DNA of 64,000 bases from Marchantia polymorpha subsp. ruderalis. Its lineage: Eukaryota; Streptophyta; Marchantiopsida; Marchantiales; Marchantiaceae. The notes under the pieces were generated by a model. The model was given only the letters and a program-made list of their open reading frames with translations. It was not told where the DNA came from and searched no databases. Position 1 is the stretch's first letter. Every line of letters starts with the position of its first letter. Positions 20,099-45,349 of this stretch are shown piece by piece. The position numbers and the translations under genes were made by a program. The stretch spans positions 25,670,501 through 25,734,500 of the forward strand of contig AP031353.1 of NCBI GenBank assembly GCA_037833965.1, in the 5' to 3' direction.

Positions 20099-20134
20099 CA
20101 TAGTGCAGTGTAGTGTTAGTTAGGACTTAGAAGG

Positions 20135-22527: not shown

Positions 22528-22615
22528 CTCAACTCGGAGGCTACTCGGAGGATGCTCAACTCGGAGGTCACTCGGAGGATGCTCGACTCGGAGGTCACTC
22601 GGAGGATGCACTGTG
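22528..22615. repeat. U5 minisatellite (TCGGAGGATGCTC type)
   Basis: ACTCGGAGGATGCTC and ACTCGGAGGTC units alternate about six times. The LTR at 33702-38634 has the same region expanded differently (38391-38480, 16-bp unit GCATCCTCCGAGTCGA). The array is a variable-number repeat within one LTR family. Confidence 0.8.
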
Positions 22616-23451
22616 CAGCGTAAGTCACTCAACACACACACCTGAAACTGGAAAAGCACAACTCGGAGGTTGGTCATGACCTCCGCTTAGGATTTCAGGG
22701 GGAAAGTCTCTCAAAAGTACACTCAGAGGCTCTGCAGGTAGTGACTCCCACTCCGGCTTTTACAACCCTCCCGCTAGTTTCTGCTAGCGTAGGGAACCCG
22801 GATTGGACTTCCCACTTCGGAACGAAGTCACTCATACGCGGTGGACGTCACCCTCGACTCACACTAAGCGCAGAGAGTACAGGTCCGACTGAGAACTCAA
22901 CTGAGACACAATCCAGTAACACACACACACACCACAACAGTCTATTGAAGAGTTTGAATTCTTAGGCACTTGTCATTCCCAGAATTACTACAGAGGTGTA
23001 CCCTGAGGGTGCCTTCTGCAGCGTAACCTGAATTGATAACCAAGGTTTACACGAAGTAACAAAACTTCACTTTGGCATTCAGGGGAAATGTCCCGTAGGA
23101 GTACAATCAGGATAGATCACTCGAAGGAGTAAGGGGGAACTGCTCAAGTATCTAACTCGCAACCGGCTCTGAGCATCGGCAATCACCCGCAGGCGTAGAT
23201 CCGCACTACTCAAGTCTCTAACCGGTATACTAGCTCTGAACATTCAGCCGAAGGCCTTCAGCTACAAAATGCGGTACCTTCACTAAGTTGTAGCTCCTCT
23301 ACGTGGTGCCAGGACTAAACGCACAAACACGCCGAGAAAGTGAGTTCCTGATCTGCACTTCCGAAACTGGAAGAATCCCAAGGCAAAACGCCTTGAACTA
23401 CTTTATACCCTCTAAGGTCCTAACTAACACTATGCTGCACTACCTGCTACC

Positions 23452-26028
23452 CTAAACGCCTGCACGGAACCAAGCTACACTACTGCACTCTGCAGATCCG
23501 GTACTGCGCCTTCTGCGCGACGGACTGCCGCGCTCTATCTCCCTACCCTGCCAGTCTTCCGACCGGCTGTGCAGCCCCAGCCGCCGAAGGCCCCCGGTCA
23601 CTTCCGACTCCAAGTGCGCCATAGTATCGCGCGCACCCGACAAGAAGGCCTCTAATTTCTTCACCACTCGCCGCCGACTCCGACTGTCACCCTCCGTCAA
23701 CGCCGCCGCCCGAAGCTCAAACTCCCTGAGCGTGATCTTCTCTTGTGCCGCCACTTCTCAATGGGTGTATCCTCTGAGACAGTGGGTCACCCGCGCCACC
23801 AACTCTTCTCGCGTCCTATCCGCATCGCGCCGGCTGTTGCCTTCCACCTCTGCCAGCTGCATCTCCGCATCCGCGCGCTGCGCCCTCAATTCCGCGCACT
23901 CGGATTGCAAGTTGCGCAACAACTCCTCATCCGCCTTGCGCGTGCTTTGACCTTCCTCTAATGCGCGCGTCTGGCGCGCAAGCTCCTCTGTTAGAATGCG
24001 GTTTTGTCTCCGCTCTTCCTGCAATTCCAACTCAATCTTTGCCCGCATTAGCTCGACATCCTCCTGGGCTTTTGTCGCCGCATCCTCCCGTTGTTGTTGC
24101 AGGGTTTGATGTAGCCTCTTCGTGATCGCCAGGTGCTGTTGGAGGGCAGTATTCCTCATCTCCAACGTTTGGCACCTAGTGGCCCAAATGGCCACCTTGT
24201 TCCTCGTCATGTTCTTGACTAACTCCACATAAGACTGCGGTTTTCTGAAATTCGCGTACTTTGCTGCCTTGCGATCCAAATATCGCAAGAGTGGTACTAT
24301 CTGCTCGCACAGTACCCCTGTTGGCGTCCCACGCACAGAGTCCGCTTCCTGTTCTTCCGAACTCGTCTCATCCTATGTTTCGAGGATTTCAGTCGCCACA
24401 GAAGCTCTTGGCGACTCCCTGGAACTGTGGCGCGTGGCAGCTTCCGCCGCGACTGCCGCTCCACTCCCTACTAAAATATCTAAGGCAATGGGAGATCCCA
24501 CCGCCTGAGCCTCCGCTCCGGCTTGATCTCTTGTTCCCGAAGGGGTCGGCGCCGTGGTCACTCTTGTCGCCTCTGCACCGCCCACTTCTGCTGCCAGCTC
24601 CTCCGGCGCGATCTGCGCAGAAGGTGTCTTCGCCGGAGGTGTGTCCGCCGAAGGCGCCCGCACAATGGTCGCCGGGTCTGTCCGCTTCGCAGTCGGCGAA
24701 TCTGGCCGACTCTCAGTTGACCGACTAGCAGTTGTCCGACTGGCAGTCGGATCCACTCTGCATGTCTTTACTCCACTTGGTCGCTTTGCTGAAGGCGCTT
24801 TCTGAGAAGCGTCTTCTTCCGAAGACGACTCTCTAAGAGTCATTGGCTCTGCAGCCAAACTCTCTTCTGCTTCCGGCCTGTTGTCCGGTTCAACACGCTG
24901 TTCTTGCCGACCTGCAGTTGGCTGACCTTCAGTCGCCCGACTCGCAGTCGGCCGACTCTCAGTTCGCCTGACTTCTTCCGAAGGCATCCGCGCCTTCTGC
25001 GCAGAGGGGTTCATCGACCTCCCCAGAACTTGCGCGATTATCTCCTCCTGCGTGGGCAGGACATTCCGCCGGACCGGAGTACGCCCGGTCTCCTCACTGC
25101 TTGTTGGCAACACCATCTTACGTGCCCTCTGCTTCGGCCGGCTGTGAAGCTCGTGGGTTGGCCGACTCCAAGTCGGCGCAGCGGGAGCTTCCGGCTGCCT
25201 GTCTTCTAGTCTCTCATCCCATTTCCGCTTCCGCGGCGCGCGCTCACTTCGATGCTCTTCTTCTGCTCTTGCCGGAGCCGGAGCTGGAGCTGGGCTGGCA
25301 GGTGCTTCGTCCGGATCTGTGTCCACTTCCGCCTCCCGCAAGTATCTACCCGGATTACTCCGGATCAGCAGCGGAAACCGCGCCCGCTCTGAAGCTGTCA
25401 AACATCCCATCGCTCGATAGAACACGATCAGGTAAGGCGAAAGATGATTGAGGGTCCCTCCTCTCTCTTCTTGCGCATGTTGGCGCGTCACCTTCCACAG
25501 GAGCCGTGCCCAATGAACCGGAGCTCCTGACAACACTAGCTCCACAAATCCCACTTGCCAACCATGCATGTAGGCGGTCTTGGTCGGCTGCAATATTTGA
25601 AGCAATGCAGTCGCGACATTTCTCCGCAATCGATCTTTATAATCCAGCGTCCGGAAACCGTTCTTGGGATGCTTGCCAACTTTGAAAAGATCATTGTATG
25701 AGTTCTCTTCCTCCTTTGACACCTTCACGCTTTCGGCCTCGAAGAGGAGATACCCTTCCTCGCCTGCACACCTTCCTAATACCTACGCCTAGTGACTAAT
25801 GTCCCACCTCTCGGGGTGGGGGCGGAATCCGCGCGAGGGCTGGTGTTTCTCCCGCAAATATTCGCGCACCATCTCCGGACACGTCCAATTCCATCCCCAC
25901 AGGAGGAAATCAAGCTTCAACCTTGTCAACACATCCTGGAATGCGCGCAAACCGATCTGCGGCACTCTGAGTGGAGACACTCGCAGCTGAGGGACCTTCG
26001 ACATATTTCTCGCTCTCCCTGCACACAC
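23452..26028 (-). pseudogene. LTR-encoded (U3) protein, broken by four stop codons
   Basis: This is one long frame of about 850 codons. The start MSKVPQLRVSPLRVPQ (about 26002) fits the Met conserved in all copies. The conserved domain comes first: GLRAFQDVLTRLKLDFLLWG, MVREYL, DYKDRLRRNVATALLQIL, HGWQVGFVELVLSG, VHWARLLWKVTRQHAQEE, GGTLNHLSPYLIVFYR. A Pro/Ser/Thr/Arg-rich linker with TASR/TESRP repeats comes next, then a coiled coil (24336-23452) ending SSVAWFRAGV. Stops: two at 25783-25791 (Trp and Gln codons in the sister copy), one near 24375 and one at 23755 (a Trp codon). The domain is faintly like plant-transposon helical domains; I assign no function. Confidence 0.6.
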
Positions 26029-27467
26029 AGACGTTCTTCCCTCCCGCTCGATCTCTCACAATCGCCGCTGCGCGTCGGCCGCTCAGACACTAACTGAAAT
26101 CGCTCTCTCCTCCCTTGCGCGCTCAATTTCTCTACTCTCAAACTCTCTTCGGGGTCCGTCAAGATCCTCGCGCAACTCGCCCCCGCGCGCCTGGTTGCTA
26201 CGCACTCCTTCCTGCTCACTGATTCCTGCACTTTCTCCAACTCACTGAAGGTCTCTCCGCCCGATTGAGCTGCACGTCTCAAGCTCTGAAGCTAGAAAAC
26301 TCACAATCAAGAATGAGAGAATGAGACTGGAGAGCAGACTTTTCTTCTCCGAATTCAAGATCGCACAACGCTCTTCGTAGGCAGTGGGTACAATCAAACT
26401 TGATTACGCAGCCGGCTATACGGCCTAACGGTTCTCCCTCGCATGCTTGAATTCACGACTCCGCACTGCGCGCATTCGCATGCGTGAACGTTGAATTCTT
26501 CCGCCGCCATCGTCCGCCGGCTCTGAGTTTGCCATCGCCGAGGGCTTCCGGACTCGAGTTCGCCGCGGTGGAGCGTACGCTTCGATTATGTTGTCTTTCC
26601 CCAACCTGCCCATCGCCGGGGGCATATCGCCGAAGGCATACTCCTTCTCCGTTGGCGCTTCGCTGGAGGCGCACATCAAGTCGGCGCGAATTACGCCGAC
26701 ACGTACTTGTACAACTTCTTTTGTCCGTTCTGTCCCGCATATCGCCGACGGCGCGTATCCCGCCGGCGCGAATTATGACAGCGCATCCGCCTGTCCGCGC
26801 CACGTCGGATGCGTACATCAGGCCGGCGCTTCTCTTCCGCCGCACAGCCGTCGAAGGCGCTTCCGCCTCCGACTTGATCTCCTCTCATGAGCGCGTGGTT
26901 TCGCCGAAGGCGTACGGGGTCCTTCCCGAAGGTGAACCCTAGCGCGAAGAGCGCATTGCCGGATGCGAGTTTACCGACGCTCATAACTTCCTCGTCCCTG
27001 ATCCATCTCAGGCGCTCTTGGGCTCGTTAGAACGAGCGTTCCGAGCTCTTCCCAATGAGACCTTAATCAAATAGAACTACCGTGAATCCTGATCGTTATG
27101 AAGGTTCCTCTCCCGCGCCAACGGCGCATCGCCGAAGGCGCACTCATGGTCGGAAGCATTCAGAGGTCCTTGCCGGCTTCTGACGTCTTCAGCGACATCT
27201 CCTCTGGAGGTGTCTGTGCCGGAAGCGTACCTTCCCTAAGCGCCGGAGGCGCGTGGGTAAAGACACCTCAGCAAAGGAGATCTTGTCGAAGGCGCCGAAG
27301 GCGTTTGGCGCCGTTACGCCCAACTCCGCGATTCTTCGTGACCCGCGATCTCCTCAATTCACTCTATTTAACGTACCATGTCCTAACTACAGACACTGCT
27401 TCGGTACTTCTTTTTCAAAATTGTTTAAATTCTGCAAAAAAAACAAAAAGTGTGTTACCACACTACG

Positions 27468-28967
27468 TGCGGAGCAGTGGGACATGCCAACACTGAGTGT
27501 CTTACCACCCGTTCGTCGTACCCCGTCAACGCAGTAGAGTGGGCACCACCGTATTATGGAGAAAACCCCAAGTACTATGGCGAGGCGAGCGAAGAGGCAG
27601 CCTACGCCATCCAATCGGTCCCCGCTACTACCCCGATTCCGCTAGTGCATATCCCCCAGTACCATCCGAGAGATAGGGCCACTACGGTGCCTGTGAGGCG
27701 CATGGCACCTCCCGGAACGTATGACCCACCGCCGCCGCGAGCTTGCTTTAATTGTGGGGAAGTGGGACACTACTCACCTAAGTGCCCCCATCCCAAGAGA
27801 CAAACCGGGTATGTTCCGAGCTGCAGTAACTGCAAGAAGTCTGGACATACCTCAGTGGAGTGCGATCAACCCCCAGTCCACCGGCCCACGGTGCGATTTG
27901 TGACGACTCCTGCCAAGGAGGAAGTACAGGTCAACCAGGTCGAGGCGAGTTCGGACAAAAACGACGAGGAAGAAGAGTGGCCTGCAGAAGAGGTTATGTG
28001 CGGACGGGTGGAAACTCGCAGTTCGAGGCGATCGAAGGAAGAGGAACGAGATACTCGTAAGCACAGTCGTAAGGTCGATGATCAAAAAGGGAAGGGAGAA
28101 GAGAAGGCAAGTAGCAGGACTGACTTGAGGCCTGCGCGAAAGCCTTCGGCTATACGCGAAACACCTGCAGCGCGGACTGACACACAGGTCGAGGATGAAC
28201 CAGTACGCGTGCTAAAGCGGGAGTACACCCCGGACATCAGAGACGAGGTAGCGGAACTGTTGAAAGAAGCGATCCGCACCCGAAAGGAAACAGAAGGAAG
28301 GAACATACCGACGCCCTCTGTTGCTCGGAGGTCTGCACCTTTGGAACCGCGCAAGACGTCGGCGTCGAGCCGACACGCCCACTACGACTTAGTAGAAGAT
28401 ATCAGGAATCAGCGAGCTAACATCACATTCAACCAGCTCCTTGACGACAACAAGACGTATCGGAAGATGTTGGTGCTTTCGCTACGCCGACCCCGGAAGC
28501 TGCGTGCAGTCAAACTTCCCCAGGTGTACCAAGTAACCAGTGAGGACCAAGGACCTCCGAAGATCGATGTGGAGATAGGCGGGTGTTGTGTACGCAAAGT
28601 ACCAGTGGACTCCGGATCGGGAGTCAACATAATGACTGAGGACACTGCGCGGGCTTTGGGGTTCAGTGTTTTTGAACCTACGAAACGCGTGTTGAGATTG
28701 GCAGATCAGACGCGGAGGATGCCTTTGGGTATGCTGCGCAATATCCGAACCAACATCGGAGGTGCGGAGTTTCCATTGACCTATATCATCCTGCTGTCTC
28801 TGGTGAAGCAAGGATATGACATCCTGCTCGGGCGACCGTGGCTATACGGCGTGCAAGTACGATGTGACTGGCGTAGGTATCGCCTTAAGTTTCTCCATCC
28901 CAAATATCCGTCAAGGACTATCACCGTCCCTTGGACCAAGATCCCTCATGAGGGGGAGACACCATAG
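27468..28967 (+). pseudogene. Gag C-terminus with zinc knuckles, and aspartic protease
   Basis: This is the continuation of gag after the solo LTR. The first CCHC knuckle is split at the insertion. Two more are intact: CFNCGEVGHYSPKC and CSNCKKSGHTSVEC (27745-27865), which bind RNA. A Lys/Glu/Arg-rich linker follows. The protease then shows VPVDSGSGVNIM with catalytic Asp at 28608-28610, and GRPWLYG downstream. The stop is at 28965-28967. A gap of about 200 nt with a different phase precedes RT, so gag-pro and pol were probably linked by frameshifting or the region has decayed. Confidence 0.88.
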
Positions 28968-29165
28968 ACGAGTGCGGGTTACACTTCGGGAGCGGACAGT
29001 GATTCGTCCATTCGGTCAGACGACTGGACTCCCGATTCCGATTATTTTGTGGGATTCGTCGCGTGCTGTTCTATAGAGGAGGAACTGAACGCTATTCAAC
29101 CGGAGGACGAATAGCAATTAACGGTAGGACTGGGAAGAAGCGAGACAAGTCATACGGAAGGTATT

Positions 29166-31950
29166 GTGAATCCTAGTGACTGTCACGAAGTACAACTTAG
29201 TCCTGGTAAGTGCTTGAAGGTATCGAGCACAGTGAAAGGAGAAGAGCTAAGGGAGGTACAGGCCTTCCTTCGCCATTACGTAGATGTCTTCGCCTGGAGA
29301 ATAGAGGACATGAAGGGAATACCTGCGCGGTATGGGGAACACCGAATTGATTTATTGGATGAGGCAGTTCCAATACGTCAACGCTAGTACCGGCTCAACC
29401 CCAAATACTCCTTGTTAGTTAAGGAGGAAATAGATAAGTTTCTGAGCGCAGGTATTATATACCCAATGCTCAGCAGTGAATGGGTATCCCCAATTGTCAT
29501 CGTACCCAAGAAGTTGACGGGTAAGATAAGGATGTGTCAGGATTTCAGAAAGTTGAACGCGGCAACGCGTAAGGATCATCACCCTCTTCCATTCACGGAT
29601 GCCATTTTAGACCATGTCGCGGGACATGAGTGCTATAGCTTTCTAGACGGTTTCTCAGGTTACAATCAGGTGTCTATCCGGGAGCAGGACAAGGATAAGA
29701 CGACATTCACAACCGATTGAGGAACCTACGCATACCACAAGATGCCCTTCGGTCTGTGCAATGCACCTGCCACCTTCTAGCGGATGATGACCAACATTTT
29801 CCAAGAGCAATTGAGGAAGTTCTTAGAAATATTCATAGACGACTTCTGCGTCTTTGGAAAACGGTCGGAACAGCTGGGGCACCTGAGACAGACCTTTGAT
29901 AGATGCAGGGAGAGCAGTTTATCGCTGCACCCCGAAAAATGTTTTTTCTTCATGACCAAATCCTGTGGGTCATCGAGTTTCATCGAATGGCATTGCAGTA
30001 GACACCGAGAAGGTTAAGGTCATCCTCGAACTAGAGCCACCAACGAATCTGAGGGAGCTGCGAGCATTTCTTGGTCATGTAGAATACTACCGAAGATTCA
30101 TACACATGTATGCGATCTTGGCAGCCAACCTGACCAAGTTGCTAAAGAAGGACGAGCCCTATGAGTGGGGTGAGAAGCAGCAGTCAGCATTCGAGGCTTT
30201 CAAAGCTAAACTTACGACCGCTCCGGTACTAAGGAGTCCAGACTGGGACCGACCTTTCCACGTCTATGTCGACACATCGGCATTCGCCATCGGTGTCGTT
30301 TTAAGTCAGAAGGATGACAACAAAAAGGACTACCCGATTTATTTTGCGAGCCGTCAGCTATCGCTAGCAGAAAGGAAGTACACCACGACGGAGAGAGAGG
30401 CGTTGGGAATGGTGTATTCCTGCAAGAAGTTTAGACACTACTTAATCTGCTACGAGTTTGTGTTTCATGTGGATCACTACGCCTTGCAGCATCTAGTAAA
30501 GAAAGCAGATCTGTCTAATTGGATAGCCAGATGGGTGCTGTTGCTGCAGGAGTTTACCTACACGGTACAGACCAGGAAGGGGGTGCACCACGAAAACGCG
30601 GATTACTTATCTAGATTATGGACCCAGCCTACAGAGGAGGAACTAGTGGATGACTTCCCGGACGAACAACTTTTTCAGTTGTCCGCTGGGCATGAGTCCC
30701 GATATGCAAAGTTGTATCGGTACCTGCTCACGCTTCAATGTCCCGAGGGCATGGACGTTGAGCAGAGGACTGTCTTTATACATAAGGCTGACCCGTATCA
30801 ACTCCAACAGGGAGTTTTGTTCAAGAAGATGGCGGACGAACGATTGTGCAGATGTGTGGAGGAATCAGAGGTTCCAAGGGTAGGAAGCGCGATGCACACC
30901 GAAGACGCGGGTGGTCACTATGCCACCCGGAATAAGGTGAGGAAGATTGTGAATGCAGGATATTGGTGGCCGACCATGTTTAAGGATGTTCTCGACTACA
31001 TTCGAAAGTGCGACAGTTGCCAAAGGACAGGGAGACCAACGCCTACAACGCGGTGGCCCCTGACTCCCATCATGCCTTTAGCACCTTTCGAGAAATGGGG
31101 CATCGACTTTGTAGGGCCAATACAACCAGTGACCAGGAACACACGAAGGCGCTACATTCTGGTAGCGACGGACTACACAACCAAGATGGTGGAGGCCAAG
31201 GCCACTCAAAGGGATGATGCAGCCACAGTAGCGACCTTCCTGTTTGAATCGATCATCACACGCTACAGATGTCCTTTAGAACTAGTCAGCGACCGAGGCA
31301 CTCACTTTTTGAACCAGATAATCAAAGATCTGACACGGCATTTTCACATCAAGCACCGGAAGACTACAACATACAATCCCAAGGCAAATGGATTGACGGA
31401 GAAGTCCAATGGTGTGCTGTGCAAAATCCTGCTCAGGGTCACGGTAAACCACGTTTACGACTGGGACACGAAGTTAGCAGCCGCATTATGGGCATACCGG
31501 ATAGCCGAGAAGATTACCACCAAGCAAACACCATACTTTTTGGTGTACGGTCAACATCCGATCCTGCCAATCGAATTCGAAGTACCCACCCAACAAACAT
31601 TGGACTTAAGACGGGTGAGTGGGGAGGAGAGTCAACTCTACAGGTTGCAGAAAGTCATGGTACTGGAGGAAAGAAGACGAGAAGCCGAAGAACGCACCAG
31701 GCGAATTCAGCTTCGCAGAAAGGAGAGGTATGATCAGAGTATCAGACCAGTGCTCCTCCAGAAAGGCGATTTGGCGTTGCTCTACGACAGTAGGCATGCC
31801 CGATTCCCAGGCAAGCTGCACCTGAGATGGATGGGACCCTACAGAGTCATCGAAGTCTTTCCAAACGGATCCATCCAACTTGCGGACTTAGCGGGAGAAT
31901 TACTAGGCACCCGAGTGAACGGGTGGCGTTTGAAGAAATACCACGTATGA
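29166..31950 (+). pseudogene. Pol: reverse transcriptase, RNase H, integrase (decayed)
   Basis: This is a Ty3/gypsy polymerase. RT covers about 29400-30000, with motifs KIRMCQDFRKLNAATRKDHH, FLDGFSGYNQ, MPFGLCNAPATF and the catalytic IDD as IFIDDFCVFG (about 29830). RNase H has YVDTSAFAIG and TTTEREALGMVYSCKKFRHY. Integrase has an HHCC finger (HTEDAGGHY to CDSCQR) and the DDE core WGIDFVG, VSDRGTHFLN, LTEKSN. A GPY/F-like MGPYRVIEVF follows, and the end is NGWRLKKYHV. There is no chromodomain; the tail fits the Tat/Athila side of Ty3. Three stops (29385, 29718, 29778) and a frameshift near 29955 inactivate RT. From 29965 the frame is open for 661 codons. Confidence 0.93.
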
Positions 31951-31987: not shown

Positions 31988-33123
31988 TGTGGTACCCCAC
32001 TTTTGGTACTTTTGCCGAAATTAAAACATTTTTGGAAAACTGTACCGCGGTAGAAGTGTAAATAGCCATCGGTACTTCAAAATAGAGTGAAACTGGATGA
32101 TCTCGGAGAATCTCGTAGAATCTCGTAGAATCCAGGAGTTGGGCGCAACGTCTGGGACAGGCGCCGCCCTAAACGACGGGCTTTGAAGGAGTACCCCTTC
32201 GGCGCAAGGCGCATAATCCGCCTTCGGCGCTACGCCTTCAGCGCTAGAGGAATCCCTCAGAATCTAATCAATTCCCAAACGCCTTGACTTGGTTAGGGTT
32301 TTGTTGGAAAGAGCTTGACGCGCTGGTTCTAACGAGCCTAAGAACGCCCGGAACGGATTAGGACTCAGGGAGTTGCGACGGTCGAAAGATAAGAAGACCT
32401 TCGCCTACGCATAGACGAGGGAAGTTCGCCTACGCATAGGCGAAATAGGGTTTGACGTAGGCGGGGAGTCCGCCGAGAATGCCGCCTACGCATAGGCGGG
32501 GAGGACTTGCACCTACGCATAGGCGGACGGGAATCGCCTACGCATAGGCGCTTCGGCGTCGGCGGGAAGTCCGCCTTCGGCCCTAGAAATCCGCCTTTGG
32601 GGTTGGAACTTGTACGTCGCCTTCGGCGCCAGCGCATCACGGTTGGGCGAGGACCCAACGGAGTAGTAAAATCCGTACGAACTGTACGGACGGAACAGAT
32701 GAGTGCGCCTTCGGCCGGTCGGGGTTACGGAGACAAGAGCGCCGGCGGAGCGGCGAGAGAGATGGACAGACTAGACGGAGTCCGTTGACCGCGGTCAACG
32801 CCTTCGGCACAGCCGCCTTCGGCGCTGCGCCTGCGGCGAGGGACCTGCGCGGACGAACGTCCTGTGTGCGGACAGAACTCGCCTACGCATAGGCGAGTGC
32901 CTACACACAGGCAGATGAAGTTCTGAGCCGGCGGAAACTCCGCCGGGGATTCCGCCTACGCAGAAGGGAGTTCGACTTTTGTCCTATGCGCGGACGAACG
33001 CCTTCGGCGGAGCGGGACTAGCCAAGTTGAAGTACGAATGAGTGTAGCGCATCGGCAAGAAATCCGCCTTCGGCGCTGCGCGACCATGGCCGCGGCGTGG
33101 TACGCTGGCGGAGTTCAAATTAC
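31988..33123 (+). mobile_element. 3' LTR of the main element, first 1.1 kb
   Basis: It is nearly identical to 14728-15850, including the hairpin array (about 32400-32560) and the palindrome at 32784-32799. Homology stops at ..GAGTTCAAATTAC. The LTR appears to resume at 33354, so about 2.3 kb or more of its middle is lost. The high identity to the 5' LTR suggests a fairly recent insertion. I cannot compute an age. Confidence 0.85.
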
Positions 33124-33353
33124 CTCCTGCTCGCGCCGAAGGCGCTTCCCCTCCGTATGAACCGTCCGTTCAAGCCAGGGCGCCTGTCCCGGACATTGCG
33201 CCCAACTCCTGGATTCTCCTGGATCTTCCTGGACCCGCGATCATCCATTTTAACTCTATTTTAGTGTACCGATTACTATTTACAGTTACTGTTGCGGTAC
33301 TGTTTTCCTAAAAAGTTTAAATTCCGCACAAAAACAAAAAGTGGGTTATCACA
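33124..33353 (-). mobile_element. LTR 5'-end fragment in reverse orientation
   Basis: Read on the minus strand it begins TGTGATAACCCACTTTTTG and follows the first about 230 bp of this LTR family. It is then cut off at the junction with the 3' LTR. Confidence 0.75.
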
Positions 33354-33701: not shown

Positions 33702-36700
33702 TGTGGTAACACACTTTTTGTTTTTTTGCAGAATTTAAACAATTTTAGAAAAGAAGTACCGAAGCAGTGTCTGTAGTTAGGAAATGGTACGTTAAATAGA
33801 GTGGATTGAGGAGATCGTCACGAGGTCACAAAGAATCGCGGAGTTGGACGTACCAACGCCAAACGCCTTCGGCAATATCTCCTTTACTGAGGTGTCTCTA
33901 CCCACGCGCTTCCAGCGCTTAGGGAAGGTACGCTTCCGGCACAGACACCTCTGGAGGAGATGTCGCTGAAGACGTCAGAAGCCGGCAAGGACCTCTGAAG
34001 GCTTCCGACCATGAGTGCGCCTTCGGCGATGCGCCGTTGGCGCGGGAGGGAAACCTTCATAACGATCGGGATTCACGGTTGTTCTAAATGATTGAGGTTT
34101 CATTGGAAAGAGCTCGGGACGCTCGTTCTAAAGAGCCCAAGAGCGCCGGAGATGGATCAGGGACGAAGAAGTTATGAGCGTCGGAAAACTTGCATCCGGA
34201 CATGCGCTGTTCGCGCTAGGGTTCACCGTCGGAGAGGACTCCCGTACGCCTTCGGCGATGCGCCTTCGGCGGAACCACGCGCTCATAAGAGGAGATCAAC
34301 TCAGAGGCGGAAGCGCCTTTGGCGGCTGCACAACGGAAGAGAAGCGCCGGCCTGATGTACGCCTCCGACGTGACGCGGACAGGCGGGTGCGCTGGCATAA
34401 TTCGCGCCGGCGGGATATGCGCCGTCGTCGATATGCGGGCAGAACGGACAAAACAGGTGGTACGAATACGCGGCGGTGTGATTCGCGCCGACTTGATGCG
34501 CGCCTCCAGCGAGGCGCCGACGGAGAAGGAATACGCCTCCGGCGATGGGCAGGTTGGGAAAAGACAACATAGTCGACGCATACGCTCCACTGCGGCGAAC
34601 TCGAGTCCGGAAGACGATGGCGAACTCGAGTCCGGAAGACGATGGCGGCGGGAGAATTCAACGTTCACGCATGCGAATGCGCGCAGTGCGGAGTCGTGAA
34701 TTCGAGCATGCAAGGGAGAACCGTTAGGCCGTATAGCCGGCTGCGTAATCAAGTTTGATTGTACCCAGGGAGAGCGTTGGGCGATCTTGAATTCGGAGAA
34801 GAAAAGTCTGCTCTCCAGTCTCATTCTCTCATTCTTGATTGTGAGTTTCCCAGCTTCAGAGATTAAGCGCAAGGGCGGAGAGACCTGCAGTGAGAAGAGA
34901 GAGTGCGGAGACGAGTTGCGCGAGGATCTTGACGGACCTTGCAGAGAGTTTGCGAGCAGAGAAATTGAGCGCGCAAGAGAAGAGAGAGCGATTTCAGTCA
35001 GTGTCTGAGCGGTCGACGCGCAGCGGCGATTGTGAGAGATCGAGCGGAAGGCAAGAAAGTCTGTGTGTGTGTAGGAAAAGCAAGAGAGATGTCGAAGATC
35101 CTCCAACTGCGAGCGTCTCCACTTAGAGTGCCGCAGATCGGTCTGCGCGCATTCCAAGATGTGTTGACAAGGTTGAAGCTTGATTTCCTCCTGTGGGGAT
35201 GGAATTGGACGTGTCCGGAGATGGTGCGCGAGTATTTGCAGGAGAAACACAAGCCCTCGCGCGGATTCCGCCCACATCCCGAGAGGTGGAACATTAGTGA
35301 CTGGGCGCAGGTGTTAGGAAGGTGTGCAGGCGAGGAAGGGTATCTCCTCTTCGAAGCCGAGAGCGTGAAGGTGTCGAAGGAGGAAGAAGTCTCCTACAAT
35401 GATCTTTTCAAAGTTGCCAGGCATCCCAAGAACGGCATCCGGACGCGGGATTACAAAGATCGATTGCGGAGAAATGTCGCGACTGCATTGCTTCAGATAT
35501 TGCAGCCGACCAAGACCGCCTACATGCATGGTTGGCAAGTGGGATTTGTGGAGCTAGTGTTGTCAGGAGCTCCGGTTCATTGGGCACGGCTCCTGTGGAA
35601 GGTGACGCGCCAACATGCGCAAGAAGAGAGAGGAGGGACCCTCAATCATCTTTTGCCTTACTTGATCGTGTTTTATCGAGCGATGGGATGTTTGACAGCT
35701 TCAGAGCGGACACGGTTTCCGCTGCTGACCCGGAGTTGTCCGGGTAGATACTTGCGGGAGGCTGAAGTGGACACAGATCCGGACGAAGCACCTGCCAGTC
35801 CAGCTCCAGCTCCAGCTCCGGCTCCAGCAAGAGCAGCAGAAGAGCGTCGAAGTGAGCGCGCACCGCGGAAGCGAAAATGGGATGAGAGACCTGAAGACAG
35901 GCAGCCGGAAGCTCCCGCTGCGCCGACCCGGAGTCGGCCAACCCACGAGCTTCACAGCCGGCCGAAACAGAGGGCACGCAAGATGGTGTTGCCAACTAGT
36001 AGTGAGGAGACCGGGCGTACTCCAGTCCGGCGGAGTATCCTGCCCACGCAGGAGGAGATAATCGCGCAGATTCTAGGGAGGTCGCTGAACCCCTCTGCGC
36101 AGAAGGCGCGGATGCCTTCAGAAGAAGACAGACCAACTGACAGTCGGCCGACTGCGAGTTGGGCGACTGAAGGACGGCCAACTGAGCAGCGCGTTGAACC
36201 GGACAGCAGGCCGGAAGCAGAAGGGAGTTTGGCTGAAGAGCCATTAACTCTTAGAGGGTCCTCTTCGGCAGAAGGCGCTTCTGAGAAAACGCCTCCAGCA
36301 AGCAGGCCAAGTGGAGTAAAGACGCGCAGGGTGGATCCGACTGCGAGTCGGACAACTGCTAGTCGGCCGACTGCGAGTCGGTCAACTGAGGGTCGGCCAG
36401 ATTCGCCGACTGCGAATTGGACCAGGCCGGCGATCATTGTGCGGCCGCCTTCGGCGGACACACCTCTTGCGAAGACACCTTCCGCGCAGATCGCGCCGGA
36501 AGAGCAGGCAGTAGAAGCGGGCGGTGCAAGGGTGACAAATGTAACTGCGGCGCCGACCCCTTCGAGAACCGAAGATCAAGCCGGAACAGAGGCTTAGGCA
36601 GTGGGATCCCCCACTGCCTTGGATATTTTAGCAGGGAGTGGAGCGGCAGTCGCGGCGGAAGCTGCCGCGCGCCACAATTCCAGGGAGTCGCCAAGAGATT

Positions 36701-38634
36701 CTGTGGCGACTGAAATCCTCGAAACAGAGGATGAGACGAGTTCGGAAGAGCAGGAAGCGGACTTTGTGCAGAAGACGCCAACAGGGGTACTGTGCGAGCA
36801 GATAGTGCCACTCCTGCGATATTTGGATCGCAAGATAGCAAAGTACTCGAGTTCCAGAAAATCGCAGTCTTATGTGGAGATTGTCAAGAGCAGGACGAGG
36901 AGCAAGGTGGCCACTTGGGCCACTAGGTGCCAAACATTGCAGGATAGGTATACTGCCCTCCGACAGCACCTGGCGATCACGCAGAGGCTACACCAAACCC
37001 TGCAACAACAGCGGGAGGATGTGGCGACGAAAGCCCAGGCGGATGCCGAGCTAATGCGGGCAAAGATCGAGTCGGAATTGCAGGAAGAGCGGAGACAAAA
37101 CCGCATTCTCACAAGAGGAGCTTGCGCGCCAGACGCGCGCATTAGAGGAAAGTCAAAGCACGCGCAAGGAGGATGAGGAGTTGTTGCGCAACTTGCAATC
37201 CGAGTGCGCGGAATTGAGGGCGCAGCGCGCAGATGCGGAGATGCAGCTAGCAGAGGTGGAAGGCAGCAGCCGGACGCGAGAGGAGTTGGTGACGCGGGTG
37301 ACTCACTGTCTAAAAGGATACGCCCACTGGGAAGTGGCGGCACAAGAGAAGATCACGCTCAGGGAGTTTGAGCTTCGGGCGGCGGCATTGACGGAGGGTG
37401 ACAGTTGGAGTCGGCGGCGAGTGGCGAGGAAATTAGAGGCCTTCTTGTCGGGTGCGCGCGACACTATGGCGCACTTGGAGTCGGAAGTGACTGCAGTTCT
37501 TCGGCGGCTGGGGTTGCGCAGCCGGTCGGAAGATTGGCAGGGTAGAGAGAAAGTGCGAGGCAGTCCGGCGCGCAGCAGGCGCAATACCGGATCTGCAGAG
37601 TGCAGTAGTGTAGCTTGGTTTCGTGCAGGAGTTTAGAGTAGCAGGTAGTGCAACGTAGTGTTAGTTAGGACCTTAGAGGGTATAAAGTAGTTCAAGGCGT
37701 TTTGCCTTGGCTCTCTTCCAGTTTCGGAAGTGCAGATCAGGAACTCACTTTCTCGGCGTGTTTGTGCATTTGGTCCTGGCACCACGTAGAGGAGCTGCAG
37801 CATAGTGAAGTTACCGCATGTTGTAGCTGAAGGCCTTCGGCTGAATGTTCAGAGCTAGTACACCGGTTAGAGACTTGAGTAGTGCGGATCTGCACCTGCG
37901 GGTGATTTCTGATGCTCAGAGCCGGTTGCGAGTTAGATATTTGAACAATTCCCCCTTACTCCTTCGAGTGACATATCCTGACTGTACTCCTACGGGAAGT
38001 TTCCCCTGAATGCTAAAGTGAAGTTTTGTTACTTCGTGTAAACCTTGGTTATCAATTCAGGTTATGTGTGTGTGTTACTGGATTGTGTCTCAGTTGAGTT
38101 CTCAGTCGGGCCTGTACTCTCTGCGCTTGGTGTGAGTCGAGGGTGACGTCCACTGCGTATGAGGGACTTCGTTCCGAAGTGGGAAGTCCAATCCGGGTTC
38201 CCTACGCTAGCAGAAACTGGCAGAAGGGCTGTAAAAGCCGGAGTGGGAGTCACTACCTGCAGAGCCTCTGAGTGAACTTTTGAGATACTTTCCCCCTGAA
38301 ATCCTAAGCGGAGGTCCTGACCGACCTCCGAGCTGTGCTTTTCCAGTTTCAGGTGTGTGTGTGTGTGTTGAGTGACTTACGCTGCACTGTGCATCCTCCG
38401 AGCATCCTCCGAGTCGAGCATCCTCCGAGTCGAGCATCCTCCGAGTCGAGCATCCTCCGAGTGGCCTCCGAGTCGAGCACTGCAGTATTTCTGGGAGTGA
38501 CAGTCGCCTGAGAATTCAAACTCTCCAAAAGTCTGTTAAACGTGACACTTTGTACTTTGTGTGTTGCCTCTGTCCCTGTGGGTTCAATCTTTTTACCACC
38601 ATACTGCAGTTTTAGCCTTTGGTGGGTTATTACA
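33702..38634 (+). mobile_element. 4,933-bp LTR (plus 23-nt leader to 38657), flanked by ACTAC
   Basis: It starts TGTGGTAACACAC and ends GTGGGTTATTACA at 38634. It is the closest relative of the solo LTR at 22369-27462. The 23 nt after the LTR (TAAGGAGCCGACAACTTCTT and three more T) are the leader that normally precedes the primer site. The flanking direct repeat ACTAC is at 33697-33701 and 38658-38662, so the inserted unit seems to include the leader. TATA box at 37681. Confidence 0.85.
35089..37636 (+). pseudogene. LTR-encoded (U3) protein, best preserved copy
   Basis: The start MSKILQLRASPLRVPQ is chosen because a Met is conserved here in four copies. The frame is open to a TAG at 36595-36597 (Gln in the sister copy), continues to a frameshift near 37110, and ends with SSVAWFRAGV at 37636, 45 nt before the TATA box. 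Order: conserved domain of about 230 aa, a Pro/Ala linker with an Arg-Lys patch (PRKRKWDER), a Thr/Ser/Arg repeat region, the ALDILAGSG motif, then about 270 aa of coiled coil. It is not gag, protease, RT or integrase. An extra structural, regulatory or accessory role is possible; none is shown. Confidence 0.65.
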
Positions 38635-38657
38635 TAAGGAGCCGACAACTTCTTTTT

Positions 38658-38968: not shown

Positions 38969-39979
38969 TTTAATAACCCACTAAAGGCTAAAACTGCAAT
39001 ATAGTGGTAGAAAGGTCGAACCCACAGGGACAGAGGAACACACAGGGTACAAAGTGTCACGTTTAAGAGACTATTGAGGAGTTTGAATTCTCAGGCGACT
39101 GTCACTCCCAGAAATACTGCAAATGTCCACTCGGAGCGCACTCGGAGGTCGCACAGTGCAGCGTAACACACACTCACACACACACCTGAAACTACAGAAA
39201 CACAACCCAGAGATCCGCTAGGAGCTCTACTCAAGATTTCAGGGGGGAAGTCTCTCAAGAGTACACTCAGCGAAGCTGCGGGTAGTGACTTCCAACTCCG
39301 GCTTTTACAACGCTTCCACTAGCTTGCTGCTAGCGTAGGAAACCCGGTTTGGACTGCCTACTTCGGATCGAAGTCACTCATACGCGGTGAACAACACTCT
39401 GAACTCACAAAACACGCAAAGAACACAGGTCCGCACTGAAGGACTCACTGAGAAACATTCCAGTAACACAATAACAGTCTATTGAAGAGTTTGAATTCTC
39501 AGGCACTTGTCATTCCCAGAAATACTACAGGGGTTACCCTGAAGGCACCTGCTGCAGCGTAACCTGAATTTACAACCAAGGCTTACACGAAGTAGCAAAA
39601 CTTCACTTTGGCATTCAGGGGAAAAATCCCAAAGGAGTACAATCAGAAAGAAACACTCGAAGGTGTAGGGGCGAAACTGTTCAAGTATCTAACTAATCAC
39701 TGGCTCTGAGCATCGGCAGTCACCCGCAGGTGCAGATTCGAACTACTCAAGTCTCTAACCAATGTACTAGCTCTGAACATTCGGCCGAAGGCCTTCAGCT
39801 ACAAAATGCGGAACGCTAAGTTGTAACTCCTCATGCGTGGTGACAGAACTCAAGGACACAAACACGCAGAGGAAATGGATTCCTGATCTGCACTTCTGAG
39901 TTTGGGAAAGAACCCCAGGCAAAACGCCTGGAACTATTTTATACCTTCTAAGTCCTAACTAGCACTACATTGCACTACG

Positions 39980-42900
39980 CTACACGCCTGCACGGAACCA
40001 CGCTACACTACACTCCGCGGAACCTGTGCTACGCCTCCTGCGCGACGGACTGCCGCGCACTAACTCCCTACCCTGCCAATCTTCCGCTCGACTGCGCAGT
40101 CCCAACCGCTGCAACGCCGCAGACACCTCCACCTCGAGGGTGGACATTTTATCCCGCGCCTTCGACAGAAAAGCTTCGAGCTTCTTCGCTACCTTCCGCC
40201 GACTCCTACTGTCGCCTGTCAACAACCCGGCTGCGCGAAGTTCAAACTCACGTAGTGTGAGTTTCTCCTGCGCCGCCACTTCCCAGTGGGCGTAGCCCTT
40301 GAGACAATGGGCGACACGCCTCGCCGTCTCCTCCTTCGTGCGATCTGCCTCTCGCCTGCGATCCTATTCAATTACCACTAATTGCGATTCGGCCTCAGCA
40401 CGCTGCGCTCTCAATTCGCCACACTTTGACTGTAGCTTGCGGATTAAATCCTCATCTGCCTGCCGTGCGAGCTGACACTCCGCCAACAACCGCATCTGTC
40501 GCACGAGCTCTTCTGACATAATCTGATTCTGAGTTTTCTCAGACATCAATTCCTGCGTGGTCTGCAGCACATCCCTGCTGAGCTCTTCCACTCTATCCTT
40601 CCGCATCCTGTCGAGGGCGTGCGCTTTCCTCTCAAGGTTGTACTGCCCCCATAAACAGGCATGTCTCTCCTTCAATTCCCTCAACTCCTGGTCCACCCTA
40701 GCTAGTAGCTTGCTGGTGTGGACTTTAGTGCGAGTCCGCCTGCGCACTAATTTGATGTAAGATCCCGGCTGAAGTGGATCGGCGTATTTATCGATTTTGC
40801 GATCCAAGTACCTCAGCAACGGAATCACCTGCTCAGAGAGCGCCGCCGCCGGCGCTCCAACAATTTCCTCCTCCTCCTCCTCGGTATCCCCCGCACCCGA
40901 CATTTCTTTGGTGGAGCCTCCGTCGTCATCATCCGAGTGGAGAATTTCAGTCGCCATTGATTGCGTCGGCGACTAACCCGAGTGGGGCTGCACGTCGTCG
41001 ACGTGTGCTGCCTGCGAAGGCACCGCTGCAGCCTCGCTGCTCTTTGCCAAAATGTCTAAGGCGGTGGGCGAATGTGCCCGTGCTACATCCCCGTCGCCCG
41101 CCTGTCGGTCTTCTACCGTATCCTCTCTGCCGCCGACGTCCGCCGCCGAAGGCGATCGAGCGGAGGGTGGCTTCGCGGGGTTTGATTGCGCTTCGCGCAC
41201 CGAAATTTCATCCCGCGGACAGTCACTCCGCTCCACCGTCCGTTGCTGCTCCCTCGAGCGGTCCGCGGGGGCTGTGCTTGGCCTGTGCGCAGGCGCAAAT
41301 GCCGGCGCCTTGTCCGCCACAGGCGCAGCGCAGCGGACGTCCATCGCCAAAGGCGACATGGCCGGGGGCCGCTCGCCCGATGTCCCTTGGCCCTGAGGCC
41401 CTACCGCCGAAGGCGCATCTACCGGCGGATTACCCGCCGATGATGCGGCCTCCGCACGCTCCATGCTCTCATCTCCTCGGCTTGAAGGCCCTGGCGCCGA
41501 AGGCGCAAATCGCGGCGCGTTGTGCGCCGGAGGATCTGGCCCCAAAGGCCGGTGTCTCGTAGGCCGATCTTCCGCCGGCTCCTTCCCCTTCCTACGTTGG
41601 AACGGGGGTGATTCCTACCTGTGCACAGGCGGCACGTGTGGAGGTGACCTGCGCACAGGCGGACTGCTTCTTCCCACGCGTAGGCGTAGGTCCACGTCCG
41701 CTTGTGGTCGTCCGTCCGCGGAGTCTCGCCCGTCCGCGGAGGCTCGTCTGTCCGCGGATGCTCGTCCGTCCGTGGAGTCTCGCCCGTGCGCAGACGGAAC
41801 ACCTGTCCGCAACGCACGTGGTAACTCCTGAGGCCCTTGGCCCGTAGGCGGCCTCCCGTCCGTCGAGGCTGCAGCGTGGTCCGTTGCTCCTGCGGACGTC
41901 CGCGCTCCCTCGTTCTTCTCTGGCTACGCACTTCCTTTCTCTGTGGCAATCGTCGCCGTGTCCGCGCTGTTGGCTGGTAACACCAGCCTGCGCGCCTTCT
42001 GCTTCGGCCGGCTGTAGGACTCGTACAACGGCCGCGGTCGAATGGGAGCAGAGGGTTCTTGATGCTGCTCTTCTTCGGACTCCTCTCTCCATCGCCGCTT
42101 CCGCGGCGCCCGTGCTGCAGGAGTATTCCTCCCTTCGTCCCTCCTCCTTGACGGAGTAGAAGTCGGTGACTCCTCTGCATCAGTGTCGACCTCATTCTCC
42201 CGCACATACTTCCCGGGATGGTCGACGGACAACGGTGGAAAACGCGCAAGCTCCGCCGCTGTCAAACAATTCCGCTGTCGATAAAAATTGATGAGGAAAG
42301 GAGAGAGATGGTTTAGAGTTCCCCCCTTCTCCTCAAAAGCGTGCTGTCGCATCACCCTGTGCAGGATGCTCGCCCAATGAATTGGAGTTCCCTCGATGAT
42401 GCACTCCACAAAAGAGACCTCCCACAATGTGATGTAGCAGGCGCGGTGTGGCTGCAGTAATTGCAGCAGCGCCGCGGACAAAGTCCGGCGGAATCGATCC
42501 TTGTAATCGCGGGTCCTGTACCCATTCTTGGTAGACCTCCCCTTCTTGAACAGCTCCACGAATTGTGCCTCTTCCTGCTTGGTCACCTTGATGCTCTCGC
42601 TATTGAAGAGGAGGTGCCCTGGCATGCCGGCACATCTCCCCAATGCCTGCGCCCAATCTTGGACTGTCCACCGATCAACATGCGGTCGCAATCCGCGCGA
42701 AGGTGGTCCCCGTGGCTCTAGCCACTCGCGCACCATATCCGCACAGATGTAGTTCCATCCCCATAGCAAGAAATCGAGCTTTCTTGCTATCAGGCGCTCC
42801 TCGAAAGCGCGCAGCCCGTTCTGTGGTAGACGGAGCGGCAGCATCCGCAATCGGCCCGGTCTCGTCATTGCGTTCTTGGAGTTCGCCCGCTCGCTCATTC

Positions 42901-43120
42901 TACTCCCGCTCCGCTCGAGCTCCTTTCTTCCTCGGCAAACTCTAATCGCCCTCAATTCCAAATCACGCGCACTCACTTCTCCCTCAATCACCAAGAAATC
43001 CTCTGCGCGGCGATGTTGAGAATGCTTAGCAGCCAGCAGATGGACGCGCGCAGCTCGCACTAGAGAATGGAATCGCGAATTCAAGAATGGGACGCTCTCC
43101 GCCTCCCGGTCGAAGGTCAT
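39980..43120 (-). pseudogene. LTR-encoded (U3) protein, second subfamily
   Basis: This is the same protein as at 35089-37636 but clearly diverged. An N-terminal extension (MTFDREAESVPFLNSRFHSL) precedes the conserved domain: LRMLPLRLPQNGLRAFEE, LLWGWNYICADMVREWL, DYKDRFRRTLSAALLQLL, VHWA replaced by IHWAS, EEKGGTLNHLSPFLINFYR, EVDTD. 41924-43120 is open (398 codons). A low-complexity part follows (41545-40973, SPTALDILA), then acidic plus coiled coil (40957-40364) and the tail (40279-39980) ending SVAWFRAGV. The stop at 40973-40975 replaces a Gln codon. The frame changes near 41920-41550. Confidence 0.6.
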
Positions 43121-43429
43121 GGTCGGCTCTTGCTCGTGAAGGACGACTCAATTGATGGCCGCGCCGACTCTACGCTGAAACGGTCTTTGCTCTCACGCGC
43201 GGCTTCACGCTCCGCCGACGCCGATTAATCTCTCACGCTCGAATTGGCGAATTTGAACTCCGCAAGCGTACTACGCCGCGGACATGGGTGCGCAGTGCCA
43301 AAGGCGGATTTTCCGCCTTGCGCGGTACACTCGTTCGTACCGCTCCTCAGCCAATCCTCTTTTGCCTCGGCGCGTGTGTTCGCATGTCGGACAAAAGTTC
43401 AACTCTCGCCTGCGCGCAGGCGGACTCCT

Positions 43430-43925
43430 CGGCGGATTCTCCGCCGGTGCGGAACTTCACCCTCCTGTGCACATGCGCTCGCCTGTGCGCAGGCGAAATC
43501 CTTCCGCGGCGATGTGCTGGCGCGGAAGGCGTTGACCGCGGTCAACCGACTCCGTCCAGACTGTCCGTTCCTTGTCTCTCCGTCGGCGCTCTCGCCGCCG
43601 CAACTCCGCCCGTCCAAGAGCGCATCCATCCGTCCCGTCCGTACAGTACGTACGGTCCGTACGGATTTTACTATTCTGGCGGCTCCTTGCTCGTCCGCGG
43701 CGTTGCGCTGGCGCAGAAGGCGCCGTACAATTTTCTACCTCACAAGGCGCATTTCTAGGGCCCAAGGCGGATTTCCCGCCGACACCGAAGCGCCTGTGCA
43801 CAGGCGCACGCCTGTGCGTAGGCAAACTTCGCGCCTACCTCAAAACCCTATTTCGCCTGTGCGCAGGCGAACTTCCTTCGTCCGCGCATAGAACAAAACT
43901 TCTCCGCCTGTGCGTAGGCGAAGAG
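43430..43925. repeat. Hairpin-rich U3 segment with GCCTGTGCGCAGGC-type stems
   Basis: Stems CGCCTGTGCGCAGGCG, GCCTGCGCGCAGGC, GCCTGTGCACAGGC and GCCTGTGCGTAGGC occur near 43406, 43490, 43790, 43855 and 43905, together with the 16-bp palindrome at 43531. They occupy the positions where the main element has CGCCTACGCATAGGCG. Confidence 0.8.
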
Positions 43926-44346
43926 CTGAGTATCTTACAACCTTCATAACTCCCGGAGTCCTTATCCGTTGTGAGCGTTCTCGGGCTCGTTGGAACTAGT
44001 GCGTTGAGCTCTTTCCAACGAGACCCTAACTAAGTCAAGGCGTTCGGGGGTTGACCTAAATATGAAGGATTTCCCTACCGCCGCGGACGCAGCTCCGAAG
44101 GCGGGTTTTGCGCCTTGCGCCGTAGGGATCCTAACTGCAGAGCTCGCAGGGAGGGTGGTGCCCTTCCTTACCGCTGCACCCAACTCCTAGATTCTACGAG
44201 GTCCCTCGAGAATCTCTGCGATCTTCCGAATTCACTCTGTTTTGATGCATCGAAGGCTATTTACATTGCTGCTAGGGTACAGTTTTCCAAAAATGTTTCA
44301 ATTTCCTCAAAATTACCAAAAGTGGGGTACCACATGGATTATTACA

Positions 44347-45349
44347 TCGGTGCAGGGAGGTCCGCTATACTCCCGCTAACTCGTGCACTCGCATCCTTCC
44401 CCGAGGATGGCGAGTTTCTTCTCTCCGCGGCTCGTCCGGTGTCCGCGCTGCTTGCCAGCAGAACGAGCTTGGGAGCTTTTTGCTTCGGCCGACTGGACGG
44501 CTCTTGAATCGCCCAACTTTGCGCGGGAGTAGCAGACACTTCTCGCTGACTCTGCTCCGCCTCTCCATCCCACTTCCGCTTCTGCGGCACTCTTGCTCCT
44601 CGCGGTTCTTCTTCTGCTCTCGGTCGAGCTGGTGGTGTGCATGCGGGTGTCTCCTCCGTGTCGGTGTCGACCTCGCCGTCCTTCACGTACCTGCCTGGAT
44701 TGCTGCATGACAGCAAGGAAAATTGCACTCGCTCCGTGGCTGTCAAGCACCCCATCGACCGATAGAAATTAATCAAGAAGGGGGAGAGGTGATTGATCGA
44801 TCCCCCCTTCTCCTCCTGCGCGTGCAGTCGTGTCGCCTTCCAGAGAATCCGAGCTCAATGGATCAGAGCTCTAGACAACGCCAGCTCCACAAACCCCACC
44901 TGCCAAGAAGTCATGTAGGTGGTCCGGTGCGGATGCAAAATTTGGAGGAGTGCTACCGCGACATTCCTCCGCAAGCGATCCTTGTAGTCACAGGTCTTGT
45001 ACCCGTTCTTGTTGGACTTGCTGTTCTTGAAAAGGGCCCCGAAGGAAATCTCTTTCTCCTTTGTGACCTGCACACTCTCGCATTCAAAAAGAAGGTGGCC
45101 TTTTTCTCCTGCGCACCTTCCCAACACTTGCTCCCAGTCGCTGACCTGCCATCTCTCCGGATGTGGTCGGATACCGCGCGGAGGTTGGTTCCTCTCCCGC
45201 AGCCACTCGCGTACCATCTCCAGACACACCCAATTCCATCCCCATAGGAGGAAATCGAGCTTCACCGCAATCAGCTCGTTCTGAAATGCGCGCAGACCAA
45301 TCTGCGGCACTTTCAGCGGAACCATCCGCAGCAAAGTGAACCGGGCCAT
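44347..45349 (-). pseudogene. LTR-encoded (U3) protein, third subfamily, truncated
   Basis: Start MARFTLLRMVPLKVPQ, then GLRAFQNELIAVKLDFLLWG, MVREWL, DYKDRLRRNVAVALLQIL, SWQVGFVELAL. A TGA (Trp in other copies) at about 44853 is followed by EEKGGSINHLSPFLINFYR, CLTATE, EVDTD and a basic patch PQKRKWDG. The frame is lost at 44347 with the LTR. It gives a third independent version of the conserved domain for comparison. Confidence 0.6.

What the first reader, a model, noticed from the sequence alone, without database searches (positions are those of the whole stretch)
35089..37636. A conserved ~850-codon protein is encoded inside the U3 of ~5-kb LTRs
Seven LTR copies (18304-20098, 23452-26028, 35089-37636, 39980-43120, 44347-45349, 53100-54289, 55300-55760) carry the same sense frame or part of it, outside gag-pol. 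Three subfamilies differ in many residues yet keep the pattern L..MVPLKVPQ.GLRAF, LLWGWN, DYKDR.RR, FVE, P.HWA, EE.GG..NHLSP.LI.FYR, EVDTD. This suggests past selection on protein rather than chance openness. The stop always lies 37-45 nt before the TATA box. In genomic RNA the frame would be the last, after pol, a position like retroviral 3' accessory genes (an analogy only).
Basis: partly seen in the sequence, partly recalled or inferred. Interest (0 to 1): 0.88.

Follow-up and report, generated by a model that had tools for sequence, protein, structure and literature searches.

The report
Conserved protein gene inside liverwort LTRs
A family of Marchantia-type liverwort retrotransposons carries a roughly 850-950-amino-acid protein gene inside its long terminal repeats, a part that is normally non-coding, and evolution has preserved that protein, so it probably serves the element.

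Summary
Elsewhere it is intact: 851-853 codons in 10 of 10 fetched A-type LTRs (chosen for long frames; one starts TTG) and 950-957 in two B-type LTRs. LTRs measure 4.82-4.93 kb (7 measured, 6 with 5-bp target duplications); the frame ends 32-44 nt before TATAAA. In a copy with gag-pol it follows integrase. Between subfamilies dN/dS is 0.15-0.24 in the N-terminal domain and 0.22-0.24 over the whole frame, against 0.92-1.69 in shifted forward frames: purifying selection on protein. No curated family matched; all named homologues are Marchantia polymorpha 'hypothetical proteins'. Parts: N-terminal domain, conserved nuclear-signal-like stretch, disordered middle, coiled-coil-like C terminus. Best reading: a nuclear accessory protein of a Tat-like Ty3/gypsy element, probably made from a spliced 3' transcript. 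Plant extra ORFs are known between pol and the 3' LTR; my searches found none inside a plant LTR, though mouse mammary tumour virus sag has that layout. Expression, structure and function are unshown.

The parts
14728..21106 (+). 5' LTR (B type) of the host Ty3/gypsy element; starts TGTGGTACCCCAC, ends TTATTACA
18565..20092 (+). B-type copy of the LTR frame in that 5' LTR; central deletion and frameshifts
21129..21148 (+). primer-binding-site-like TGGCGCCGCTGCCGGGGACA, 22 nt after the LTR end (tRNA-Arg type recalled, not matched to a tRNA here)
21373..22368 (+). gag (PF03732) of the host element, cut by the nested LTR
22369..27462 (-). nested solo LTR (A type) with target duplication CGTAG
23455..26004 (-). 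A-type LTR frame, 858 aligned positions, with internal stops
27466..31950 (+). zinc knuckle, protease, RNase H, integrase (H2C2, rve) frames of the host element
31988..33124 (+). start of the host element's 3' LTR (B type), 37 nt after the integrase frame; interrupted downstream
33702..38634 (+). A-type LTR that holds the frame of the finding; target duplication ACTAC only if the 22-nt pre-primer-site spacer is counted as inserted
35089..37636 (+). the LTR frame of the finding (A type), from the conserved ATG; stop at 36595-36597, frameshift near 37113
35089..35796 (+). N-terminal 236-aa domain, dN/dS 0.15-0.24 between subfamilies
35863..35880 (+). conserved basic stretch PRKRKW, nuclear-signal-like; a second (RPKQRAR) lies about 30 residues on
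36760..37636 (+). C-terminal charged, coiled-coil-like part, its last 200 residues conserved between subfamilies
37681..37686 (+). TATAAA of the LTR promoter, 44 nt after the stop codon of this copy
   Evidence: read
38971..44334 (-). nested LTR (B type), reverse, probable target duplication ATCCA
39983..42868 (-). B-type LTR frame, 963 aligned positions, damaged; open for the first 314 codons from the conserved ATG
44360..45349 (-). third-subfamily (C) fragment, N-terminal part, one stop in the domain
53082..54342 (+). C-terminal half of a B-like copy
55303..55758 (-). C-terminal fragment of a B-like copy

Best explanation
The frame is a real gene of a Tat-like Ty3/gypsy retrotransposon family. 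It lies in U3, between the LTR start and the TATA box, and so is the last gene of the genomic RNA, after pol. Reverse transcription copies that single U3 into both LTRs, so each insertion carries the gene twice and solo LTRs keep it. Shown: the layout, the intact frames and the purifying selection. Inferred: the protein is made from a spliced 3' transcript that starts at the 5' LTR TATA box, because 9-21 upstream ATGs make scanning from U3 implausible and a CAG lies 7-14 nt before the start codon in 10 of 12 copies. Inferred: it enters the nucleus through its conserved basic stretch, oligomerises through its coiled coil, and acts there as an accessory factor for the element's RNA, pre-integration DNA or LTR chromatin.
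For: LTR limits from 5-bp target duplications in 6 of 10 fetched A LTRs. One element shows gag, zinc knuckle, protease, RT, RNase H, integrase (in several frames), then the 3' LTR after 37 nt; the frame's sequence is in the 3' LTR and in the fetched part of the 5' LTR, and the two LTRs are 98.64% identical over that part (2836 of 2875 aligned sites). dN/dS, A against B: N-terminal 0.21-0.24, middle 0.33-0.46, C-terminal 0.12 in one pair and dS saturated in the other, whole 0.22-0.24; window copies 0.151-0.244. Yardstick, other frames of A and B elements: zinc knuckle-protease 0.137; RNase H-integrase dN 0.082 with saturated dS. In 20 loci not chosen for frame length, 40 of 92 gaps in the frame after the domain are multiples of 3, against 21 of 91 in U3 upstream, Fisher p 0.005. 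The ATG is kept in all 7 aligned copies while the sequence before it diverges. RKR[K/R]W in 12 of 12 and RPKQ[R/K]AR in 11 of 12 full frames. No TATA-like site upstream of the frame in 5 of 6 LTRs examined.
Against: No RNA, ribosome or protein data were available. The splice site is a guess: CAG before the start is missing in 2 of 12 copies (one A, B2) and in the window A and B copies, and no donor was proven. Two structure predictions of the domain failed (mean pLDDT 50.2 and 42.8), so no fold supports any activity. Nuclear entry rests on a short basic motif. dS between subfamilies is 1.5 or more, near saturation, so dN/dS is approximate. Copies were picked by protein similarity, which lowers dN among A copies. 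One reverse frame also shows dN/dS of 0.27-0.45, which I take as codon-phase coupling but did not test. Weak sub-cutoff profile hits exist (best E 0.0013 in 1 of 36 members; PriC 0.0032; SMC 0.0035); I take them as coiled-coil or composition matches.
Confidence: 0.6

Rival explanations
1. The frame is an independent gene of each LTR, including solo LTRs, driven by a TATA-less promoter in the first 1.4 kb of U3 and ended by the LTR's own poly(A) site; it is a dispersed gene family rather than a 3' cistron of the genomic RNA.
For: All 6 solo LTRs with target duplications carry frames of 851-853 codons, though copies were chosen for long frames. Upstream ATGs argue against simple scanning from the genomic RNA. 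Public M. polymorpha gene models are pieces of it, e.g. Mp_8g15400 = P0073.
Against: No TATA-like site upstream in 5 of 6 LTRs; U3 just upstream of the ATG is poorly conserved between subfamilies; gene models are no proof of expression.
Confidence: 0.2
2. The protein is structural, a gag- or envelope-like particle component, rather than a nuclear accessory factor.
For: Coiled-coil-like C terminus; dN not far from that of the zinc knuckle-protease part (0.35-0.48 against 0.295); some plant 3' sense ORFs are called env-like (PMC7264820, passages read).
Against: A separate gag with PF03732 and zinc knuckles is present; conserved basic nuclear-signal-like stretch; no 50-residue block above 46% hydrophobic residues (no transmembrane predictor was run).
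Confidence: 0.12
3. A captured host gene or host-domesticated protein hitch-hikes in the LTR.
For: Other retrotransposons capture host genes (PMC7264820, passages read).
Confidence: 0.05
4. The open frame is a chance result of G+C-rich, repeat-like sequence.
For: The middle part is low-complexity and P/S/T/A-rich.
Against: Frame-specific dN/dS; conserved start, stop position and length.
Confidence: 0.02

Closest known systems
Extra/additional ORFs (eORF-3'F, aORF-3S) of plant LTR retrotransposons such as OTA/Tat and SIRE (PMC6317226, PMC7264820: passages read)
   Same: Extra sense gene after pol, outside gag-pol, lineage-specific sequence, unknown function
   Different: Described most often between pol and the 3' LTR; here the frame is inside the LTR (U3), hence doubled per insertion and kept in solo LTRs. 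No shared Pfam domain found.
Retand antisense TRP28 ORFs (PMC11963269: passages read)
   Same: Accessory gene near the 3' end of a Tat-lineage element, with a proposed DNA-binding or regulatory role
   Different: Antisense, internal, PF04195; here sense, in U3, no PF04195 match
Mouse mammary tumour virus sag (PMC4667437: passages read)
   Same: Most of the gene lies in U3 of the LTR; found mostly in solo LTRs; purifying selection reported (omega 0.289)
   Different: Retrovirus of mammals; sag is shorter (recalled) and its protein was not compared here
[not shown]
   Same: Marchantia, Ty3/gypsy with native RNase H and no additional RNase H
   Different: The passages I read mention no LTR gene; I did not place this family on an RT tree

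Membership tests
Ty3/gypsy LTR retrotransposon | LTRs with TG...CA ends and 5-bp target duplications | tested here: met
   6 of 10 fetched A LTRs; window LTR 22369-27462
Ty3/gypsy LTR retrotransposon | order protease, RT, RNase H, integrase | tested here: met
   successive frames in L033, G000:C4:10257583-10267582
Tat lineage | additional RNase H (aRH) domain | tested here: not met
   [not shown]
Tat lineage | RT/integrase phylogenetic placement | not tested
   no reference RT set was at hand
Tat lineage | primer site complementary to tRNA-Arg | tested here: inconclusive
   TGGCGCCGCTGCCGGGGACA follows the LTR; the tRNA type is recalled, not matched
plant eORF-3'F / aORF-3S | sense frame of at least 250 codons downstream of the polyprotein | tested here: met
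plant eORF-3'F / aORF-3S | placed between pol and the 3' LTR | tested here: not met
   frame lies inside the LTR
plant mobile domain, Transposase_28, Athila ORF-1 proteins | profile match PF10536, PF04195 or PF03078 | tested here: not met
   none of the three among matches of 36 members at E 0.1; full frame 0 families at E 1; remote homology is not excluded
MMTV-type U3 gene | gene in U3 of the LTR | tested here: met
   frame between LTR start and TATAAA
MMTV-type U3 gene | Sag protein homology | not tested
   no Sag sequence was compared; the full frame has no Pfam match at E 1

The most novel reading that the evidence does not exclude
A plant retrotransposon lineage has independently built an MMTV-like layout: a gene in U3 that encodes a nuclear protein acting back on the LTR that carries it, such as an anti-silencing or transcription factor. 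Reverse transcription doubles the gene at each insertion and solo-LTR formation spares it, so the LTRs of the genome form a dispersed gene family.
Probability: 0.25. Interest if true: 0.82.

Novelty: new variant of a known kind. Interest (0 to 1): 0.64.

Why it matters
LTRs are treated as ordinarily non-coding. A selected gene of 850-950 codons in U3 of an apparently abundant liverwort family would mean that plant LTR retrotransposons can be complex in the retroviral sense. It would help to explain the unusual LTR length, and it recasts a set of public Marchantia 'hypothetical proteins' as retrotransposon products. It also makes testable why extra ORFs are kept: intact frames are many and Marchantia is an experimental model.

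Tried and rejected
Chance openness: rejected by frame-specific dN/dS. Ordinary gag: rejected, gag is a separate frame. Known extra-ORF domains: no match. Whole-genome searches for PF20167, PF04195 and PF10536 found nothing, but their controls were silent too, so they show nothing. Homologues outside Marchantia: none named in three searches (4 of 46, 9 of 59 and 0 of 10 hits come from a source 'lgn' without organism; searches scored only the 8000 best candidates). Structure: two predictions too poor to use, so no fold search was run. Antisense frame 34216-35277 across the start of the frame: no Pfam match, not pursued. A TATA-driven promoter upstream of the frame: none in 5 of 6 LTRs. My indel count used loci in mixed orientation and is void; one search replaces it. 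The indel count used copies chosen for open frames and is biased; I do not use it. Literature (open-licence PMC only; titles and abstract starts of the listings): searches showed 20 of 143, 20 of 108, 15 of 184 and 15 of 47 papers; others showed all 7, 7 and 5. None of those listed looked like a report of a gene inside a plant LTR. I read passages, not whole texts, of PMC6317226, PMC10508981, PMC11963269, PMC7264820 and PMC4667437. PMC6317226 looked for extra ORFs up- or downstream of the polyprotein, so an LTR ORF could be in its tables unseen by me.
Full report
Where it is. The window is G000:C4:25670501-25734500 of a 241-Mb, nine-contig genome. The nearest named proteins are from Marchantia polymorpha subsp. 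ruderalis, so I take the host to be a Marchantia; the genome itself is unnamed.

The window. A B-type Ty3/gypsy element starts at 14728, with its 5' LTR to 21106, a primer-site-like stretch at 21129, gag at 21373-22368, zinc knuckle-protease to integrase to 31950, and the 3' LTR start at 31988. Into it are nested an A-type solo LTR in reverse (22369-27462, duplication CGTAG), an A-type LTR in sense (33702-38634, the one of the finding), and a B-type LTR in reverse (38971-44334, probable duplication ATCCA). Each of these nested LTRs carries a full-length but damaged frame; further fragments lie at 18565-20092, 44360-45349, 53082-54342 and 55303-55758.

The family. The B domain also returns 150 of 8073, at least 95% identical, 47 of them without a stop in the domain and with an open frame of 1000 or more (my count). 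An older subfamily (P0046 as query) gives 136 match rows, of which only three longer than 100 residues are free of stops (my reading). So the family has dead, ageing and young branches that share one frame.

LTR anatomy. Ten A copies with long frames were fetched with about 10 kb on each side of the start codon. Seven gave both LTR ends, 4823-4929 bp long; six of these are solo LTRs with 5-bp duplications (TAGTG, ACACT, GTAGT, TCAAG, ATCCA, GGTTC) and the seventh is the 3' LTR of an element; three were not resolved. The LTR reads: about 1.3-1.4 kb, then the frame (851-853 codons), then TATAAA 32-44 nt after the stop, then about 1 kb of R-U5. In the copy at C4:10257583-10277582 the order is 5' LTR (fetched from inside the frame on), R-U5, primer site, gag, zinc knuckle, protease, RT, RNase H, integrase, 3' LTR with the frame; its gag-pol lies in several frames. 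The integrase frame ends 37 nt before the 3' LTR. A B-type 5' LTR of about 4.95 kb with an open frame of 1043 codons (950 from the conserved ATG) is followed by the primer site and gag.

Selection. Between the window's A, B and C copies dN/dS of the domain is 0.212 (A-B), 0.151 (A-C) and 0.197 (B-C), and 0.244 between two A copies. The shifted forward frames give 0.81-1.69; one reverse frame gives 0.27-0.45 and the other two 0.61-1.90. Over full frames, A against two B copies: N-terminal 0.238 and 0.208, middle 0.461 and 0.333, C-terminal 0.12 where dS could be computed, whole 0.242 and 0.215. dS is 1.5 or more, near saturation. For comparison, the zinc knuckle-protease part of an A and the window's B element gives 0.137, and RNase H-integrase has dN 0.082 with saturated dS: in dN the LTR protein is nearer to the gag-side proteins and faster than RNase H-integrase. 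In 20 loci not picked for frame length the frame after the domain has 40 of 92 gaps in multiples of three, U3 upstream 21 of 91; only 3 of those 20 stay open to the end of the fetched stretch.

The protein. The ATG is kept in 7 of 7 aligned copies while the sequence before it diverges. The N-terminal 236 residues and the last 200 are conserved between A and B; the middle is not, except around a basic stretch RKR[K/R]W (12 of 12) and RPKQ[R/K]AR (11 of 12) about 30 residues later. The middle is rich in P, S, T and A; the C-terminal part is charged and in places heptad-like (a crude score of my own). No Pfam, NCBIfam or PDB match reaches a curated cut-off or is otherwise convincing; weak ones are PriC (E 0.0032, a C-terminal piece), single-member Pfam hits (best E 0.0013 in 1 of 36), SMC (E 0.0035) and PDB hits at E 0.52 and 0.64. 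AlphaFold gave mean pLDDT 50.2 and 42.8: mostly helical, unusable for a fold search.

Relatives. 42 of 46, 50 of 59 and 10 of 10 hits in three searches are M. polymorpha hypothetical proteins; the rest are 'lgn' records without organism. P0073 (Mp_8g15400) reads as the C-terminal part of an A-type frame, and P0035 and P0079 hold both ends: these public gene models are pieces of the LTR frame.

How it may work. Genomic RNA runs from R in the 5' LTR to R in the 3' LTR, so U3 occurs in it once, after pol (established retrotransposon biology). The 9-21 ATGs in the 1.36-1.5 kb before the frame (12 copies) argue against scanning, and no TATA-like site precedes the frame in 5 of 6 LTRs. A CAG lies 7-14 nt before the start codon in 10 of 12 copies, but not in the window's A and B copies; a GTAAG lies in R-U5 of the one A and the one B element examined. 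I infer a spliced 3' transcript; this is unproven. With its basic stretch and coiled coil I infer a nuclear accessory protein. This is the weakest step.

Noticed in passing
window 33702-38661: This LTR insertion seems to end not at TTATTACA but 22 nt further on, just before where the primer site would be; the duplication ACTAC fits only then. It may record integration of an untrimmed cDNA end.
   Followed up: partly
G000:C1: Many rows of the old, decayed P0046 subfamily lie on contig C1, whose listed coordinates stay below 5.4 Mb (perhaps the sex chromosome; inferred).
   Followed up: no
G000:C1:2315780, 2709213, 3075333 and 2426623, 2832992, 3175505: Two sets of three places with equal scores, spaced about 0.34-0.41 Mb apart, suggest a large segmental triplication on C1.
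   Followed up: no
window 59103-63998 (-): An open frame of 1631 aa with RT, RNase H and integrase of another Ty3/gypsy element, near the window edge.
   Followed up: partly
window 46501-48171 (-) and 48568-49523 (+): Reverse pol fragment with a weak protease match beside an LTR tail of a further, diverged LTR type with the same primer site; no LTR frame was recognised upstream of that tail.
   Followed up: partly
R-U5 of one A and one B element: A GTAAG donor-like site (CGTGTAAGCCT) at about the same distance into R-U5 in both; a candidate splice donor for the 3' gene.
   Followed up: no
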